A DNA stretch of 49,608 bases from positions 1-49,608 of the forward strand of contig SHZY01000025.1 of assembly GCA_009692065.1 (NCBI GenBank), written 5' to 3'. This document shows, in pieces, positions 3,849 to 46,915 of this stretch (the first letter of the stretch is position 1; each line of letters begins with the position of its first letter). The stretch comes from Gemmataceae bacterium. Lineage in GTDB: Bacteria; Planctomycetota; Planctomycetia; Gemmatales; Gemmataceae. The notes beneath the pieces are model-generated. The model saw only the letters and a list, made by a program, of their open reading frames with translations. It made no database searches and was not told the DNA's origin. The position numbers and the translations under genes are program-made.

Positions 3849-6134
3849 ATGCTACGAAAAATTGCTGTAGTCTGTCCAGCTTTGTTGCTGGCATTTCCCT
3901 GGATGCTCGTCGCCGTCCAACCGAGCCCGCCGCCGTTAGATGTTCAGGCGCTCAGGCAGAAGCCGATCACGACTGCCGGCGGCAAAGTCGGCGAGCTTCT
4001 CAAACTGTGGTGGAAGGAAAGCACCGCCGCGGGCAACGCCGGCGATTTCTACGACAACCGCGACGGCGATCATTCCCCCTTAAGTCTCGCGCCGTGGCCG
4101 CAAATGTCGGCCTTCCAATATTCGGCTGAGGACATCAAGTTCAAACGCCACTGGGCCGCCGCCCGCGTGGTCCGCCCGCACGTGACCTTCGGCAACTCCT
4201 CAACGTCCGCGCCGGCCCACCTCGGCGGCAGCAATCCACGGCACAACTATGTCGGCCAGTTCGGCCTGTCGCTTCTTTACGATCAGTACCGAGGCAACAA
4301 CCTCTACATCTATCCAGAACACCGCGATCACGATCCGGGCCACAACGGCCTCCTTCTCCCCTCTCCCTTTGGGAGAGGGGTTGGGGGTGAGGGAGGCCAC
4401 GGCGATATGTATCCGACCAATACGCCGTATCTCCTCATCTCGCAAGGCTCGTCCGGCTCCGATCAGCCGTTCATGCGCATGATGCCCTATGTGTTGGCCG
4501 CGTTCAGCCCCGAGGTCAAGAAAAAGCTGATCGAGACCGGCACGTTGATGCCGACGATCCAGATGCTCTTCCGCTCCACCAACAAGCACCTCAAGGACCC
4601 CAAGGAATACCTGACCGGCAAGGCCCACCCAAGCGTCTTCGAAGGCAGCTGGGTCGATGAGCTCGCCATGGTGCAAAAAGCCCACGCCCTGGAGCTGAAG
4701 TCGCTGCCGCCGATGGTACAGTTGCGCGTGCTGGAAGACGACAAGGCGATCAACGGCATCGATTACTTCGACACGCATCCGTCGGAAGTGATCGGCACCA
4801 CGCCGGCCTGCATCGCCCGCGTCCATCGCAGCAAGGCGCACAAGCAGCGCCTCGTCGTCGATGCCGGCGCGAGCTTCGATGTCAACAAGGCCAAGCTGAC
4901 CTACACCTGGGTGGTGCTGCGCGGCGATCCCGACAAGATCAAGATCGTGCCGAAGAAGGACGATCAATCGGTCGCGGAGATCACCGTCGCCTGGCACGAC
5001 CGCCGCCCGGTGTCGCCGGGCTCGCCGCTGGAATCGAACCGCGTCGATATCGGCGTCTTCGTCCACAACGGCACGCATTACTCCGCGCCCGGCTTCGTCA
5101 CCTTCCACACCCTCGACCGCGAAGCGCGCGTTTACAGCCGCGACGGCAAGATTCTCTCGGTCGCGCATGGCATGGGCGATGCGGATGTGCGCGTAACCAA
5201 TTGGGAGAAACTGTTCTCACAGCTCGCCAAGGACAACACGGCAGCACGGCTGCTTGGCATCAGCAAGGAACAACAAGTCGCGCTGGGCGAGATGGCGGCG
5301 CTCCTTCTGGACGTGAACCAGCAAATACTTCAAATACGGTCGCAGATTCAGAAGGGTGAAAAGGCCATCAAGGATTCGAAAGACGAGAAACAGAAACAGC
5401 AGGTCAAAAAACTGATGGACCAAGGCAACCAGCTGATCGTCAAAGCTCAGATGTTCTTCGAAAAGGCACTAGACACGACGGAAAAAACTCTCGACGATTC
5501 GCCGCGGCACTTCTTTGAAACACGCTTTGCGAAGCTCACGCAGGACCCCTTATTCACCCAGAACCAAGCCGATTGGCTCAAGAAAAACCGCACGCCCGCC
5601 AACGAAGCCCGCATCAAATCGCTGTGGCAGAAGATGAGCCGGCTGGGCATCGCGAACGACAAGGAAGTGCTGACGCCGCTCTTGCCGGGCGCGACGCTGG
5701 AGAAGGCGACGTGGACCGCCTTCGAGCGCTCGCAGCTTGAATGGCTGCACGCGTCCCTGCTGGCGGAGCTGGCGTTTCCGGGCGCGTTGACGGAGTCGTA
5801 TCAGGTCAACTACGTCGATCATCGGCTGTCGGCGCCGCGCGAATGGCGCGATTTCCAACGCTATGACCTCAAAGGCGAATGGATCGGCTGGATGCGCTAC
5901 GGGACCGACGTGCCCCAGATTTTCAACCACGAAGGGCTGCTCGCCGTCGATCGCGATCTGCGCGGCTGTGTCGTGAAGGGCCGCACCGTGCGCTACGTGC
6001 AGGACCCGCCCAAGGGCAAGGGGATCAACCCGAATCCGCTGCGGTTGGTGCTCGGCGATACGATCATACGCTACGAGTTCGACGGCAAGGACGATTGGCG
6101 TGGGCGGCGGGCGGGGATGGAAACGATCAAATAG
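3849..6134 (+). CDS. Large secreted protein of unknown function
   Basis: This is a protein of about 761 residues beginning with a signal peptide (MLRKIAVVCPALLLAFPW). The ATG at 3849 fits the signal better than the upstream GTG at 3813. The middle (about residues 330-440) reads like an Ig/PKD-type beta domain (VDAGASFDVNKAKLTYTW), followed by a Gln/Lys-rich helical stretch (about 480-560) that is probably a coiled coil, then a compact C-terminal region. No catalytic motif was recognised. Around 4347-4398 a GC-rich palindromic element is inserted in frame, adding a Gly/Pro/Arg-rich segment (LPSPFGRGVGGEGG). The flanking text (DPGHNG, GDMYPTNTPY) looks conserved, so the element is probably a recent insertion. 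Role unknown. Confidence 0.7.
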   Translation: MLRKIAVVCPALLLAFPWMLVAVQPSPPPLDVQALRQKPITTAGGKVGELLKLWWKESTAAGNAGDFYDNRDGDHSPLSLAPWPQMSAFQYSAEDIKFKRHWAAARVVRPHVTFGNSSTSAPAHLGGSNPRHNYVGQFGLSLLYDQYRGNNLYIYPEHRDHDPGHNGLLLPSPFGRGVGGEGGHGDMYPTNTPYLLISQGSSGSDQPFMRMMPYVLAAFSPEVKKKLIETGTLMPTIQMLFRSTNKHLKDPKEYLTGKAHPSVFEGSWVDELAMVQKAHALELKSLPPMVQLRVLEDDKAINGIDYFDTHPSEVIGTTPACIARVHRSKAHKQRLVVDAGASFDVNKAKLTYTWVVLRGDPDKIKIVPKKDDQSVAEITVAWHDRRPVSPGSPLESNRVDIGVFVHNGTHYSAPGFVTFHTLDREARVYSRDGKILSVAHGMGDADVRVTNWEKLFSQLAKDNTAARLLGISKEQQVALGEMAALLLDVNQQILQIRSQIQKGEKAIKDSKDEKQKQQVKKLMDQGNQLIVKAQMFFEKALDTTEKTLDDSPRHFFETRFAKLTQDPLFTQNQADWLKKNRTPANEARIKSLWQKMSRLGIANDKEVLTPLLPGATLEKATWTAFERSQLEWLHASLLAELAFPGALTESYQVNYVDHRLSAPREWRDFQRYDLKGEWIGWMRYGTDVPQIFNHEGLLAVDRDLRGCVVKGRTVRYVQDPPKGKGINPNPLRLVLGDTIIRYEFDGKDDWRGRRAGMETIK
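4347..4398. repeat. Palindromic element inserted in frame within a CDS
   Basis: CTCCCCTCTCCC, then TTT, then GGGAGAGGGG, followed by a G-rich tail, lies inside the secreted-protein gene. The frame is kept. The translated SPFGRG / SPLPLGEG text, depending on frame, is typical of dispersed palindromic elements seen in many bacteria. Confidence 0.7.
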
Positions 6135-6196
6135 GTCCGAGCCCGAGCGCCAAGCGAGGGGCACTCGCGCCCCTCGCTTGGCGCTCGGGTTCGGAC
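6135..6196. repeat. Inverted repeat between two genes
   Basis: Arms at 6135-6162 and 6169-6196 (28 bp, one mismatch) with a 6-nt loop. It begins at the stop of the secreted protein gene and ends 11 bp before the glycerate kinase ATG. The arm opening (GTCCGAGCC) resembles the copies at 2225 and 35233. Confidence 0.85.
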
Positions 6197-6207
6197 AGGA
6201 ACATCCA

Positions 6208-7500
6208 ATGCGCGACGACTTGCGCCAGCACGCCCGTTTGATTTGGAACGCCGCCGTGAACGCGGTGCGCCCGCTGCCGCTGGTGTGTCGAGCGCTTGGC
6301 GATCTTGCAGAGGAGCTGCGATCCGCGCGGCGCATCCTCGTGCTCGGCGCCGGCAAGGCGGGGGGAGCGATGGCGGAGGCCGTCGAACTGGCGCTGGGCG
6401 ATCAGCTAGATCGCGTCGAGGGGATTGTCAACGTCCCCGCGAATGCGGCCAAGCCCTTGAAGAAAATCCGGCTCCACTCTGCCCGGCCCGCGGCAACCAA
6501 CTTTCCGACCGCTGAAGGCGTCGCCGGCGCCGAGGAGATGCTGCGGCTCGCGCGCACCGCCGGCCCGGACGACATTGCGCTCTGCCTCCTCTCCGGCGGC
6601 GGGTCGGCCCTCTTACCGGCGCCGGCCGACCGCATTAGCCTGGCGGACAAGCTGGCGATCACCAAGCTTCTGCACCAGTGCGGCGCGACTATCAACGAGA
6701 TGAACGCCGTCCGCAAGCATCTGAGCGCCATCAAGGGAGGCCGGCTCGCGCAAGCCTTCACCGGCAAGGCGCTCTACAGCCTCATCATCAGCGACGTGAT
6801 CGGCGACCCGCTTGACGTGATCGCGTCGGGCCCCACGGCGCCCGATCCCTCAACGTTCGCCGACGCGCTGGCCGTGCTCGATCGCTTTCAGTTGCGCGAT
6901 CGCTTGCCTGCTGCCGTACTCGTGCATTTACAACAAGGAGCGGCTGGCAAGATCCCGGAGACGCCGAAGGCGATTGGGCCGAACATCTACAACCTGATCC
7001 TCGGCAACAATGCTCATGCGCTCGCGGCAGCAGAAATGTCCGCGCGCCAACTCGGCTATCACGTGCTTAACCTCGGCTCGGACATCGCCGGCGAAACCCG
7101 CGACGTGGCAATCAAACACGCCGACCTGATGCCGTCGATCACGCCGCCGGTCTGCATCCTCAGCGGCGGCGAGACTACGGTCACCCTGTCGTCGAATCCG
7201 GGCAAGGGCGGCCGCAACCAGGAATACGTCCTGGCGGTGCTCTTGAGGTTGGGAGCAATGCCGAACGTCGCCATCCTCTCGGGCGGCACCGACGGCGAGG
7301 ACGGGCCCACCGACGCCGCCGGCGTGATTGCCGATGATGCGACATTGGAACGCGCAGCATTGCTCGGTCTGGACGGCGCCGATTACCTGCAGCGCAACGA
7401 TTCCTATCACTTCTTCCAGGCGACCGGCGATCTGCTCATCATCGGTCTGACGCAAACCAATGTCATGGACGTGCGCGTGTTGCTGGTCGACCGCCCCTGA
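6208..7500 (+). CDS. Glycerate 2-kinase, MOFRL family
   Basis: This family phosphorylates D-glycerate to 2-phosphoglycerate with ATP, feeding glyoxylate- or serine-derived carbon into glycolysis. At 430 residues it has the expected length. Markers are LVLGAGKAGGAM near residue 50, the Gly-rich LSGGGSALLPAP near 130, a conserved NAVRKHLSAIKGG segment (about 168-180), and the C-terminal MOFRL domain with SGGETTV and GGRNQE (about 315-340) and GTDGEDGPTDAAG. The ATG at 6208 follows AGGA. The longer frame from 6100 overlaps the preceding gene and is rejected. No partner pathway genes are adjacent. A parS-like palindrome starts on the base after the stop. Confidence 0.85.
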   Translation: MRDDLRQHARLIWNAAVNAVRPLPLVCRALGDLAEELRSARRILVLGAGKAGGAMAEAVELALGDQLDRVEGIVNVPANAAKPLKKIRLHSARPAATNFPTAEGVAGAEEMLRLARTAGPDDIALCLLSGGGSALLPAPADRISLADKLAITKLLHQCGATINEMNAVRKHLSAIKGGRLAQAFTGKALYSLIISDVIGDPLDVIASGPTAPDPSTFADALAVLDRFQLRDRLPAAVLVHLQQGAAGKIPETPKAIGPNIYNLILGNNAHALAAAEMSARQLGYHVLNLGSDIAGETRDVAIKHADLMPSITPPVCILSGGETTVTLSSNPGKGGRNQEYVLAVLLRLGAMPNVAILSGGTDGEDGPTDAAGVIADDATLERAALLGLDGADYLQRNDSYHFFQATGDLLIIGLTQTNVMDVRVLLVDRP

Positions 7501-7516
7501 TGTTCCACGTGGAACA
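7501..7516. promoter_or_regulatory. parS-like centromere site
   Basis: TGTTCCACGTGGAACA is a perfect 16-bp palindrome that fits the chromosomal ParB-binding parS consensus known from several phyla (Bacillus TGTTTCACGTGAAACA; Pseudomonas nearly identical to this one). It immediately follows the glycerate kinase stop. No parA or parB gene is in the window. I found no second copy by eye. Confidence 0.6.
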
Positions 7517-7549
7517 TCAGTACATTGATAAAGGTACTGACGCACGAAA

Positions 7550-7587
7550 ATGACTTGCCTTGCGCTTGCAAGTTTCACACACACACA
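7550..7587 (+). repeat. 38-bp dispersed element, copy 1
   Basis: This block, beginning ATGACTTGCCTTGCGC and ending in a CA-dinucleotide tract, is repeated exactly at 46878-46915 on the same strand. Here it lies in the leader of the protease-fusion gene, 43 bp before its ATG. Confidence 0.85.
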
Positions 7588-7629: not shown

Positions 7630-9840
7630 ATGCCTTCGATTGGCGTTCGCCTCACCACCTGCTTTTTCCTTGCGCTCTCACTGCATCTGCCGATATTCGG
7701 CCAGGAAAAGAAACCCGCACCAAAGAACGTGGAACAGCTCGCCGAGCAGGCCAAGGAATCGATCGCGATCATCCTGTATGCAGGCCGCGACGGCAAGCAG
7801 CAGGGGCTCGGCACCGGGTTCGTGATCTCCGAGGACGGGCTGATTGCCACCAACCTGCACGTCATCGGCGACGCTCGCCCCATCACCGTGCAGCTCTCCG
7901 ATGGCTCCAAGCACGAGGCGACTGCCGTCCACGCCTCCGATCGCAAGCTCGATCTCGCCATCGTCAAAATCGACGCCAAGCGGAAGCTCAAGCCGCTGGT
8001 GCTGGGTGACTCGAGCAAGTTGCCACAAGGGCTCGCCATCGTCGCCATCGGCCATCCGCTCGGGTTGGAGCACAGCGTCGTCGCCGGTGTCCTGTCGGGC
8101 AAGCGTGATTTCGACGGCGTGTCGATGCTGCAACTCGCCATTCCGATCGAGCAAGGCAACTCCGGCGGACCGGTGCTCGACATGCAGGGACGCGTTGTCG
8201 GCATCGTCACCCTCAAGTCGGCCCGCACCAATAACCTCGGCTTTGCCGTGCCGGTCAACGCACTCAAGCAGATTCAGAATCGCCCCAACCCGATCGCGAT
8301 CGAGCAATGGCTCACCATCGGCGCGCTCGACAAAACCGAATGGAAAACGATGTACGGCGCCCGCTGGCGTCAACGTGCTGGTCGCATCCTCGCCGACGGC
8401 GCCGGCACCGGTTTTGGCGGGCGGACACTGTGCCTCTCCGAACGCAAGCCGCCGGAGTTCCCCTACGAGGCCACCGTCACCGTCAAACTCGACGACGAAG
8501 CCGGCGCCGCCGGCCTTATCTTCGGCGGTGATGACGACGGCAAGCACTACGGCTTCTACCCCACCGGCGGCAAGCTCCGCCTCACCCGCTTCGATGGGCC
8601 GAACGTCTTCTCGTGGAATATCCTGCACGATCAGAAGTCGCCCGCTTATCGCCCCGGCGATTGGAACACGATCAAGGTGCGCATCGAGAAGGACAAGTTC
8701 ACCTGCTACATCAACGAGGAGAAGATTACCGAGCTGCCGAACCCGGAATACTACGGCACGGTGGTCGGCCTCGCCAAGTTCCGCGACACGGTCGCCGAGT
8801 TCAAGAAATTCCAGGCCGCTCCGAAGGTAGCCACGAGCGCGATCAAGCCCGAGACCCGTTTAGCGTTCGAGAAATCCCTGGCGAAAATTGGACTCGACAA
8901 GGAGACACCCTTCAAGGATCTCGCGCCCCTCTTGAAATCCCCCGTGGACAGTCAGGCACTGCTGCGCGAAAAGGCGCGCGAGCTGGAAAAGCAAGCCGAG
9001 CAACTGCGCAAGTTGGCAGTGACGGTGCATCACGAACGGTGCGTCGCGGACTTGGCGGAACTCTTCAAGGCGCCGGATGAGAAGGTTGATCTCGCGATGG
9101 CGGCATTGTTGATCGCACGCTTCGATAACGAAGAGCTTGACGTTGACTTCTATCGGCAGGAGATTGATCGACTGGCGCGTCAGGTGTCCACAAAGTTACC
9201 AGCGAGCGCGAAGCCGCAAGCGGCAGTGGAGGCGCTCAATAAGTTCCTCTTCAAGGAACGCGGCTTTCACGGCAGCCATACCGAGTACTACTCGCGCTCG
9301 AACAGCTATCTCAACGAAGTGATCGACGACCGCGAGGGGTTGCCGATCACGCTCTCCGTCCTCTACATCGAGATCGCACGTCGGCTCAAGCTGACCGTGG
9401 TCGGCGTGCCGTTGCCTGGCCATTTTGTGGTGCGCCACGAACCAAAGGGGGAGAAGGAACAGTACATCGACGTCTTCGACGGTAAGCTGCTGTCGCGTGC
9501 GGAGGCGGAAGCAAAGATCAAGAAGGTAACCGGTCGCGCGCCGGAGGAGGACGATTTCAAGGCGGCGACCAAAAAAACGATCGTGGTGCGGATGCTCCAC
9601 AACCTGATCAACGTCGCCGAGTCGGAGAAGGACCGCGGCAGCATCCTGCGTTATCTCGACGGCATCATGGCGGTCGATCCGGACGCGTATGAGGAGCGCT
9701 GGGCCCGCGCCGTCTTCCGCTTCCAGGCCGGGCTGCGTGCGGGTTCGCTGGCCGACTGCGAGCATTTGCTGAAGCAGGACCCGCCCGGCGCCGATCTGGA
9801 GCGCGTGCGCGAGTTGCGGCGAATATTGGAGAAGAAATGA
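7630..9840 (+). CDS. Secreted trypsin-like protease fused to laminin-like and SirB1/transglutaminase-like domains
   Basis: This 736-residue protein has a signal peptide (residues 1-24). An HtrA-type serine protease domain (about 40-230) shows H77 (NLHVIG), D109 (LDLAIVK) and S178 (GNSGGP), a complete catalytic triad, with no PDZ domain. Residues about 265-400 look like a beta-sandwich of the DUF1080/laminin-G type (GAAGLIFGGDDDGKHYGFYP). A SirB1-like transglutaminase core follows (about 510-690) with GLPITLSVLYIEIARR and PGHFVVRH, then a short helical tail resembling TPR units. The start is the ATG at 7630, because the frame from 7525 runs through the repeated element. It is probably periplasmic or surface-located. 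SirB1 domains are usually cytoplasmic, so this secreted fusion is unusual. Substrate unknown. Confidence 0.8.
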   Translation: MPSIGVRLTTCFFLALSLHLPIFGQEKKPAPKNVEQLAEQAKESIAIILYAGRDGKQQGLGTGFVISEDGLIATNLHVIGDARPITVQLSDGSKHEATAVHASDRKLDLAIVKIDAKRKLKPLVLGDSSKLPQGLAIVAIGHPLGLEHSVVAGVLSGKRDFDGVSMLQLAIPIEQGNSGGPVLDMQGRVVGIVTLKSARTNNLGFAVPVNALKQIQNRPNPIAIEQWLTIGALDKTEWKTMYGARWRQRAGRILADGAGTGFGGRTLCLSERKPPEFPYEATVTVKLDDEAGAAGLIFGGDDDGKHYGFYPTGGKLRLTRFDGPNVFSWNILHDQKSPAYRPGDWNTIKVRIEKDKFTCYINEEKITELPNPEYYGTVVGLAKFRDTVAEFKKFQAAPKVATSAIKPETRLAFEKSLAKIGLDKETPFKDLAPLLKSPVDSQALLREKARELEKQAEQLRKLAVTVHHERCVADLAELFKAPDEKVDLAMAALLIARFDNEELDVDFYRQEIDRLARQVSTKLPASAKPQAAVEALNKFLFKERGFHGSHTEYYSRSNSYLNEVIDDREGLPITLSVLYIEIARRLKLTVVGVPLPGHFVVRHEPKGEKEQYIDVFDGKLLSRAEAEAKIKKVTGRAPEEDDFKAATKKTIVVRMLHNLINVAESEKDRGSILRYLDGIMAVDPDAYEERWARAVFRFQAGLRAGSLADCEHLLKQDPPGADLERVRELRRILEKK

Positions 9841-46877: not shown

Positions 46878-46915
46878 ATGACTTGCCTTGCGCTTGCAAG
46901 TTTCACACACACACA
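46878..46915 (+). repeat. 38-bp dispersed element, copy 2
   Basis: Exact copy of 7550-7587, same orientation, ending in CA dinucleotides. The remaining gap 46916-47104 shows nothing else I can support beyond a possible AT-rich -10 near 47072. Confidence 0.85.

What the first reader, a model, noticed from the sequence alone, without database searches (positions are those of the whole stretch)
7501..7516. Perfect parS-like palindrome right after the glycerate kinase stop
TGTTCCACGTGGAACA is an exact 16-bp inverted repeat and a textbook fit to chromosomal parS, the ParB-CTP clamp loading site. An exact 16-mer is very unlikely to arise by chance in 50 kb. parS sites normally cluster near the replication origin, so this would place the window in an origin-proximal segregation zone of a planctomycete, where chromosome segregation is poorly studied. 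No parA/parB is in view.
Basis: partly seen in the sequence, partly recalled or inferred. Interest (0 to 1): 0.72.

Follow-up and report, generated by a model that had tools for sequence, protein, structure and literature searches.

The report
Scattered chromosome-segregation sites in Gemmataceae
The 16-letter palindrome is very probably a real docking site for ParB, a protein that helps bacteria sort their chromosomes, but it is one of many copies scattered over separate pieces of this genome rather than a marker of the replication origin.

Summary
The palindrome is exactly where reported and is not chance. The window's genome (G000, 255 contigs, a planctomycete of a family that includes MAGs titled Gemmata) holds 13 exact copies on 10 contigs, against about 0.001 expected. 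Four form an array with 44-45 bp spacing, beginning 93 bp upstream of a canonical parB on contig C90. The window site is therefore best read as a parS: a ParB loading site.

The origin inference does not hold as stated. The nine other exact copies are singles, one per contig. Three of six sister species scatter such sites, and their central four bases mostly follow those beside parB where that was seen (ACGT in G000; mainly GCGC in G002, with 6 ACGT exceptions). In a more contiguous relative, an uncultured Gemmata, 48 sites lie on contigs making up 82% of the genome; all 45 singles are in a repeat of about 145-185 bp (one partial) with inverted-repeat ends. Relatives of that genus in 1-3 contigs have only 2-4 sites. 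Scattering is thus lineage-specific and arose by more than one route.

Whether G000's own sites are spread evenly or concentrated near the origin cannot be settled from a fragmented assembly. ParB binding is inferred, not shown. Novelty: a new variant (dispersed, partly repeat-borne parS) of a known kind.

The parts
7501..7516 (.). parS-type 16-bp palindrome TGTTCCACGTGGAACA
   Evidence: exact match; 13 exact copies in the genome; four of them upstream of parB
7497..7520 (.). extended perfect 24-bp palindrome CTGATGTTCCACGTGGAACATCAG, overlapping the TGA stop of the upstream gene
   Evidence: palindrome extension; self-match on the opposite strand
7550..7587 (+). REP-like intergenic repeat ATGACTTGCCTTGCGCTTGCAAGTTTCACACACACACA, starting 34 bp after the end of the parS
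   Evidence: 26 genomic copies at up to 2 mismatches; within about 100 bp of a parS at 5 of 11 single sites
46878..46915 (+). second window copy of the same repeat, without a parS nearby
   Evidence: best parS match within 200 bases has 7 mismatches
6100..7500 (+). glycerate kinase-like gene (DUF4147 + MOFRL); the true start is probably an internal ATG
7630..9840 (+). trypsin-like protease / transglutaminase-like gene (ORF open from 7525; likely ATG at 7630)

Best explanation
Window 7501-7516 is a parS: a nucleation and loading site for this genome's chromosomal ParB. Shown: the 16-mer occurs 13 times exactly; four copies form an array just upstream of parB; the ParB has the three expected domains and the parS-type recognition arginine; scattered sites in this genome and in sister G002 mostly match the type beside parB. 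Inferred: ParB dimers recognise the palindrome, close as a CTP clamp and slide onto flanking DNA, as in studied ParBs. The array at parB is the main centromere and may also control parB. The single scattered sites, this one included, are secondary loading points over a larger part of the chromosome, possibly serving nucleoid compaction or SMC recruitment. The window site is thus a member of a dispersed parS set, not by itself evidence of an origin-proximal zone.
For: 13 exact copies on 10 contigs, reversed-pattern control 0, about 0.0009 expected. Four-copy array C90:21820-21969 beside the only strong TIGR00180 hit, C90:21134-21664, 174.8 bits. That ParB has ParB_N, HTH_ParB and ParB_C domains and aligns with solved ParB and Spo0J chains. 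Of 28 canonical G-handle parB loci examined, 25 have a parS-like sequence within about 700 bp upstream: 20 a perfect 14-bp palindrome, 5 only an imperfect one. Centre-type agreement: G000 array ACGT x4, and 15 of 16 genome sites ACGT with 0 GCGC; G002 parB sites GCGC x2, and 24 of 30 genome sites GCGC; G003 and G004 parB site GCGC, and their only site is that one. The same 16-mer is P. aeruginosa parS2/parS3, the sites its ParB binds best in vitro (PMC4368675, passages). Dispersal: 15 site contigs = 3.93 of 4.79 Mb in G078; single sites on separate contigs in G000, G001, G002, G021.
Against: No binding data exist. G000's contigs cannot be ordered; its 10 contigs with exact sites total only 412 kb, 6.9% of the genome, so an origin-side zone is not excluded. 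In G002 six scattered sites are ACGT although its parB sites are GCGC. Five of the nine exact single sites of G000 lie inside long genes, and one of these is shared with G001 in a conserved aminotransferase motif, so protein constraint may explain at least that one. The two genes flanking the window site lie on different contigs in all five relatives where both were found, so the site's position is not conserved. No ParA was found among the three parB-side neighbours of G000 scanned. Of 28 parB loci, 3 have no parS-like sequence upstream by my pattern.
Confidence: 0.8

Rival explanations
1. Classical origin-proximal parS cluster: the sites all lie in one broad origin zone, and only the fragmented assembly makes them look scattered. 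The window is then origin-proximal.
For: Typical parS lie near the origin (stated in PMC5815017 and PMC7383237 passages). Two neighbouring window genes match 99-102 kb in G066, where parB is at 62.5 kb and the skew origin near 0. The contigs with exact sites in G000 sum to only 6.9% of the genome.
Against: In G078 the sites must span at least about 3.5 of 4.79 Mb in any contig order (contig sum less the two largest end trims). At the C238 site of G000 the genes on one side match 4.771-4.773 Mb in G066 (68%, 65%), near its skew terminus, and those on the other side 2.71 Mb (57%, 41%). Other G000 site contigs have single matches at 0.64, 1.64 and 2.53 Mb (66%, 65%, 45%), and three further window genes at 0.83, 3.79 and 4.70 Mb. 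All this rests on gene order that is poorly conserved.
Confidence: 0.17
2. Hitch-hiking parS: the scattered copies were spread by small repeats or transposon-like elements that carry a ParB site for their own benefit or by accident, and serve no host function.
For: In G078, all 45 non-array sites sit in copies (one partial) of one element of about 145-185 bp with inverted-repeat ends. In G000, 5 of 11 single sites lie within about 100 bp of a 26-copy repeat.
Against: No such element surrounds the G000 sites: 0 of 11 singles have the arm at up to 2 mismatches. Five of 9 exact singles are inside long genes, and 21 of 26 repeat copies have no parS nearby. In G078 the parS core is exact in 36 of 42 copies found by the neighbouring arm, more than the arm's own mismatch rate predicts, which suggests selection on the core; in G021 it is not (17 of 36, P = 0.25).
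Confidence: 0.25
3. The palindrome is the operator of another palindrome-binding protein (a Noc-like ParB paralogue or a transcription factor) that happens to share the ParB sequence.
For: The six ACGT sites of G002 differ from its parB-side GCGC sites. Noc sites in Firmicutes are a precedent for a ParB paralogue with its own 16-mer (PMC7383237 passages).
Against: G000 has one strong ParB; its other two TIGR00180 hits are weak, at 32 bits. G002 has a single hit. The ParB keeps R at the position that is Q in Noc. The G000 array at parB is the same 16-mer.
Confidence: 0.06
4. Chance or protein-coding coincidence: codons for x-F-H-V-E-H/Q in GC-rich genes give the 16-mer.
For: Four of five in-gene sites of G000 read in the frame (M/L)FHVE(H/Q); the G001 and G000 aminotransferases share it.
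Against: About 0.0009 copies expected, 13 seen. Of 95 family genomes, 57 have no core match at all, and 27 of the other 38 have only one or two. The window copy is intergenic.
Confidence: 0.01

Closest known systems
Chromosomal ParABS parS, Pseudomonas aeruginosa parS2/parS3
   Same: identical 16-mer TGTTCCACGTGGAACA, the highest-affinity sites there; that species and B. subtilis also have some parS outside the origin domain (PMC4368675, passages)
   Different: P. aeruginosa has ten sites; its two perfect ones are among the four close to the origin, and the six others carry two mismatches. Here the scattered single sites are themselves perfect.
Multi-parS origin clusters (Streptomyces coelicolor and Listeria innocua, 22 sites each near the origin, per PMC5815017 passage)
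   Same: tens of parS copies in one genome
   Different: those are described as near the origin; in G078 the sites lie on contigs making up 82% of the genome
Noc and NBS of Bacillus subtilis (PMC7383237, passages)
   Same: a ParB-fold protein with a 16-bp palindrome; that NBS lie at many places on the chromosome is recalled, not read here
   Different: the site is parS-type, and the G000 ParB has the parS-type arginine (R150 = Caulobacter R173), not the Noc glutamine
MITE / REP-type short interspersed elements (named from memory)
   Same: the G078 carrier is short, multicopy and ends in inverted repeats; the G000 repeat is short, multicopy and intergenic
   Different: the G078 element carries a perfect parS core; no target-site duplication was seen by eye in a few copies and no transposase was sought

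Membership tests
parS (chromosomal ParB site) | 16-bp palindrome of the parS type | tested here: met
   exact 16-mer; identical to P. aeruginosa parS2/3
parS (chromosomal ParB site) | same sequence found at the parB locus of the same genome | tested here: met
   four copies, C90:21820-21969, the nearest starting 93 bp upstream of the parB start
parS (chromosomal ParB site) | ParB with a matching helix-turn-helix is encoded | tested here: met
   PF02195, PF17762, PF23552; R150 aligns with Caulobacter R173; match judged by sequence only
parS (chromosomal ParB site) | copies clustered near the replication origin | tested here: inconclusive
   G000 contigs not orderable; exact sites on 10 contigs; not met in relative G078
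parS (chromosomal ParB site) | bound by ParB, supports CTP-dependent clamp loading | not testable with these tools
   needs EMSA, ChIP-seq or a CTPase assay
ParABS system | ParA ATPase partner, usually beside parB | tested here: inconclusive
   no ParA domain in three G000 neighbours and seven neighbours in L273, L284 and L288; parA elsewhere in G000 was not searched
Noc / NBS | NBS-type site and Q at the position of ParB R173 | tested here: not met
   protein has R; site has G and A at the two positions that are A and C in NBS (positions; their place in the 16-mer is worked out from the recalled NBS sequence)
MITE-type carrier element (as in G078) | the element's arm and inverted-repeat ends around the parS | tested here: not met
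   arm at up to 2 mismatches: 0 of 11 G000 singles, window included; left and right ends at up to 3 mismatches: 1 of 11 each; only a separate REP-like repeat at variable distance

The most novel reading that the evidence does not exclude
In several Gemmataceae lineages ParB is not confined to an origin centromere. It loads at tens of perfect parS sites spread round the chromosome. These arose separately: by transposon-like carriers in one Gemmata clade, and singly in the window's genus, where a change at one base of the site evolved together with ParB. ParB would then act as a chromosome-wide organiser of these nucleoids.
Probability: 0.4. Interest if true: 0.85.

Novelty: new variant of a known kind. 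Interest (0 to 1): 0.6.

Why it matters
Textbook parS sites sit near the origin, and in Caulobacter extra parS clusters in mid-arm harm cells (PMC5815017, passages). A bacterial family in which perfect parS sites are spread over most of the chromosome, in some lineages riding on a transposon-like repeat, would be a natural experiment on what ParB and SMC do when loading is not confined to one place. It also offers a set of species in which ParB and its site appear to have changed together at one base.

Tried and rejected
Looked for a G078-type carrier element around the G000 sites: none. Looked for parS beside the other copies of the REP-like repeat: best match 5-7 mismatches at the 21 others (rows L221 and L223 scored the better repeat copy 70 bases away instead of their own, with a window that still covers most of their surroundings). 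Tried to place G000 contigs by similarity to sampled stretches of complete G066: 13 matches on 6 of 13 contigs (one of the six, C117, carries dnaA and no parS), too few, and gene order is scrambled. Tested an origin-to-terminus gradient of density in G078: Spearman -0.39, p = 0.14, 16 contigs, not significant. Looked for a terminator or known RNA at the site: none. Looked for one ParB residue explaining the GCGC/ACGT switch: within the HTH only residue 151 (T in G000, S in all 6 GCGC-type ParBs aligned) separates G000 from its sisters, and other ACGT-type ParBs have S, T or P there; residues 253 and 286 outside the HTH also differ. A178 (Caulobacter 201) is A in G000 and in 5 of 6 GCGC types but G in the 15 others, so it does not separate G000. 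Rows dropped before counting the 11 G000 single sites (9 exact, 2 with one outer mismatch): C90:30027 (central mismatch, in a gene), C23:13209 (two mismatches), C83:11247 (ACGC centre). In one search short, weakly coding ORF calls of 66-107 aa over the C125, C159 and C238 sites (and 82 aa over the array) were not counted as genes. In one search one of twelve G068 singles (L263, GTTTC core) was not counted.

Full report
OBSERVATION. The 16-mer is present at 7501-7516 and is the only match in the window at up to 3 mismatches. It extends to a perfect 24-bp palindrome, 7497-7520, overlapping the stop codon of a DUF4147/MOFRL glycerate kinase gene. The next gene, a trypsin-like/transglutaminase-like protein, probably starts at 7630. 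No terminator-like site and no Rfam match lies at the spot.

GENOME COPIES. The window is contig C101 of G000 (5.97 Mb, 255 contigs). There are 13 exact copies on 10 contigs, with 0 for the reversed pattern, plus three one-mismatch and one two-mismatch copies, where the reversed pattern gives 1 at up to two mismatches. About 0.0009 exact copies are expected from base or dinucleotide composition of 168 kb of this genome.

PARB. The best ParB hit (TIGR00180, 174.8 bits) is at C90:21134-21664, and four exact copies stand 44-45 bp apart at C90:21820-21969. The protein, L188:3868-4728 on the minus strand (286 aa), has ParB_N, HTH_ParB and ParB_C domains and aligns with solved ParB, Spo0J and Noc chains. 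With the numbering of PMC7383237 (passages), residue R150 is Caulobacter R173, the residue that is Q in Noc. The nearest site starts 93 bp upstream of the parB start. In 25 of 28 canonical G-handle parB loci a parS-like sequence lies within about 700 bp upstream, perfect over 14 bp in 20 and imperfect in 5; the three paralogue loci in the same list (27-31% identity) had none. So the 16-mer is the natural partner of this ParB. It is also identical to P. aeruginosa parS2/parS3 (PMC4368675, passages).

CONTEXT OF THE G000 COPIES. Of nine exact single copies, five lie inside long genes with strong coding composition (C10, C68, C91, C195, C231) and four between genes (C101 = window, C143, C196, C238), leaving short weak ORF calls aside. 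Four of the five in-gene copies read (M/L)FHVE(H/Q). The C231 copy is shared with G001 in an aminotransferase motif. A separate 26-copy intergenic repeat, AAAATGACTTGCCTTGCGCTTGC(A/G)AGTTTCACACACAC, lies within about 100 bp of five of eleven single sites, counting the one-mismatch copies C125 and C159. Chance gives about 2e-12, or 7e-8 if both are confined to an assumed 12% intergenic DNA. Spacing and order vary, and the other 21 copies of the repeat have no parS nearby, so it is not one composite element.

SISTER SPECIES. Searching GTTCCRCGYGGAAC over the seven genomes of the genus gave G000 16 (15 ACGT, 1 ACGC), G001 11 (9 GCGC, 1 ACGT, 1 ACGC), G002 30 (24 GCGC, 6 ACGT), G005 4 (all GCGC), G003 1, G004 1, G006 0. 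So three of six sisters (G001, G002, G005) scatter such sites and three do not. The parB-side site is ACGT x4 in G000, GCGC x2 in G002, and GCGC x1 in G003 and G004. A canonical parB was not found in G001 (weak hit only) or G006 and was not looked for in G005. Scattered sites therefore follow the parB-side type in G000 and mostly in G002, the two genomes where both can be compared; this is the best evidence that they are ParB sites. The six ACGT sites of G002 are the exception. The differing base is base 7 of the 16-mer, by my reckoning position 6 in PMC7383237, which that paper links to residue 201. The equivalent residue (A178) is A in G000 and in 5 of 6 GCGC-type ParBs, and G in all 15 others aligned. 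A relaxed reading of this base is a guess consistent with G002 having both types.

WIDER FAMILY. Over 95 family genomes, 38 have at least one GTTYCACGTGRAAC. The large sets are G078 (48), G021 (24), G068 (16), G000 (15), G079 (13), G080 (9) and G002 (6). Of genomes of G078's genus in 1-3 contigs, G065 and G067 have only the pair upstream of parB, as has G064 (20 contigs); G066, a single 9.0 Mb contig, has 4: two at parB, one at 8.988 Mb and one at 2.27 Mb. Contig lengths tie G078 to an uncultured Gemmata MAG (CALDUT01), G021 to Gemmata sp. SKYG68 and G002 to MAG K_Offshore_80m_m2_128; other close parB records are titled Gemmataceae or Planctomycetota, one Singulisphaera. The family name Gemmataceae for f1 is my inference from these titles.

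G078. The 48 sites (46 places, counting the array once) lie on 15 contigs totalling 3.93 of 4.79 Mb. In any contig order they would span at least about 3.5 Mb, so they cannot all be origin-proximal. Uniform spread over contigs is not rejected (p = 0.18), and a gradient with distance in G066 is not significant. All 45 single sites lie in copies of an AT-rich element, 143-185 bp as matched in 44 and 85 bp in one, with conservation stopping sharply outside; a left end like ATGTCTACTTTTG is found in 43 and an inverted right end in 41 at up to 3 mismatches. Since these copies were found by the core, I searched by the neighbouring arm instead: 36 of 42 arms in G078 have an exact core, more than the arm's mismatch rate predicts (P about 5e-10, a simple binomial), against 17 of 36 in G021 (P = 0.25). 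So the core looks selected in G078 but not in G021. In G021, 19 of 20 singles have the arm at up to 2 mismatches and 16-17 the ends; in G068 and G079 none of 21 has the ends, yet 7 of 11 and 5 of 10 have the arm ACATTCTAAC at up to 2 mismatches at the same distance from the core; in G000 0 of 11 has the arm.

POSITION OF THE WINDOW. GC skew in the sampled first 5.33 Mb of G066 puts the origin near 0 and the terminus near 4.4-4.5 Mb, noisily. Of 979 ORFs searched from G078 and G000, G000 gave 13 matches on 6 of its 13 sampled contigs. In the window, two neighbouring genes match 99-102 kb (65%, 76%) and three others 0.83, 3.79 and 4.70 Mb (41-58%). At the C238 site, one side matches 4.771-4.773 Mb (68%, 65%) and the other 2.71 Mb (57%, 41%). 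C195, C196 and C91 have one match each, at 0.64, 1.64 and 2.53 Mb. This suggests spread, but in all five sisters where both were found (G001, G003, G004, G005, G006) the two genes flanking the window site lie on different contigs, and on at least one side the place where the other should be is present without it. Distance inferred from another genus is therefore weak.

MECHANISM. ParB clamp loading and sliding are established for studied ParBs and inferred here. The array at parB is the likely centromere. What single sites do is unknown; nucleoid compaction or SMC loading is my best guess.

LITERATURE. Full-text searches of the held open library for parS with ParB and Planctomycetes (11 papers; only PMC5352709 opened, passages only, about plasmid ParA/ParB), Gemmata with chromosome segregation and ParB (2, listing only), parS with ParB and miniature inverted-repeat (2, listing only), and ParB with Planctomycetota, nucleoid and segregation (0) showed no listing that announces dispersed parS in this family. 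Further searches on dispersed or chromosome-wide parS gave 0, 98 (12 listed) and 1 papers, and one on ParB/Noc specificity 9 (8 listed); of these I saw listings and the passages cited. Livny 2007 is not held and is cited only through others. Subscription journals were not searched.

Noticed in passing
G078, e.g. L067:9845-10027, L071:9851-10032, and 43 more: An AT-rich interspersed element of about 145-185 bp with inverted-repeat ends and short end repeats (TGTCTATTTT-like) carries a perfect parS core in an uncultured Gemmata; at least two size classes, no target-site duplication seen by eye in a few copies, no transposase sought.
   Followed up: partly
window 7550-7587 and 46878-46915; 26 copies in G000: REP-like intergenic repeat AAAATGACTTGCCTTGCGCTTGC(A/G)AGTTTCACACACAC, near parS at 5 of 11 single sites; in G005 a copy (C50:6842-6882) also lies 8 bp from a GCGC-type parS (C50:6890).
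   Followed up: partly
window 6135-6196: Near-perfect 28-bp inverted repeat with 6-bp loop, with related copies in G000 and its genus: a second REP-type repeat family, within the 5' part of the called glycerate kinase ORF.
   Followed up: no
G068 and G079 single sites, e.g. L256, L257, L266, L268: The arm ACATTCTAAC at fixed distance on one side of the parS core recurs in 12 of 21 singles of two genomes without the inverted-repeat ends, hinting at a composite site with a second binding protein.
   Followed up: partly
G002:C243:89-253: Four GCGC-type parS in a short array near a contig end, separate from the two at parB on C92:29-78; perhaps the continuation of the same array.
   Followed up: no
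L188:3868-4728 and neighbours: parB stands without a ParA domain among the three neighbours scanned; catalase-peroxidase-like and fumarase-like ORFs are nearby (recognised from the translations, not scanned).
   Followed up: partly
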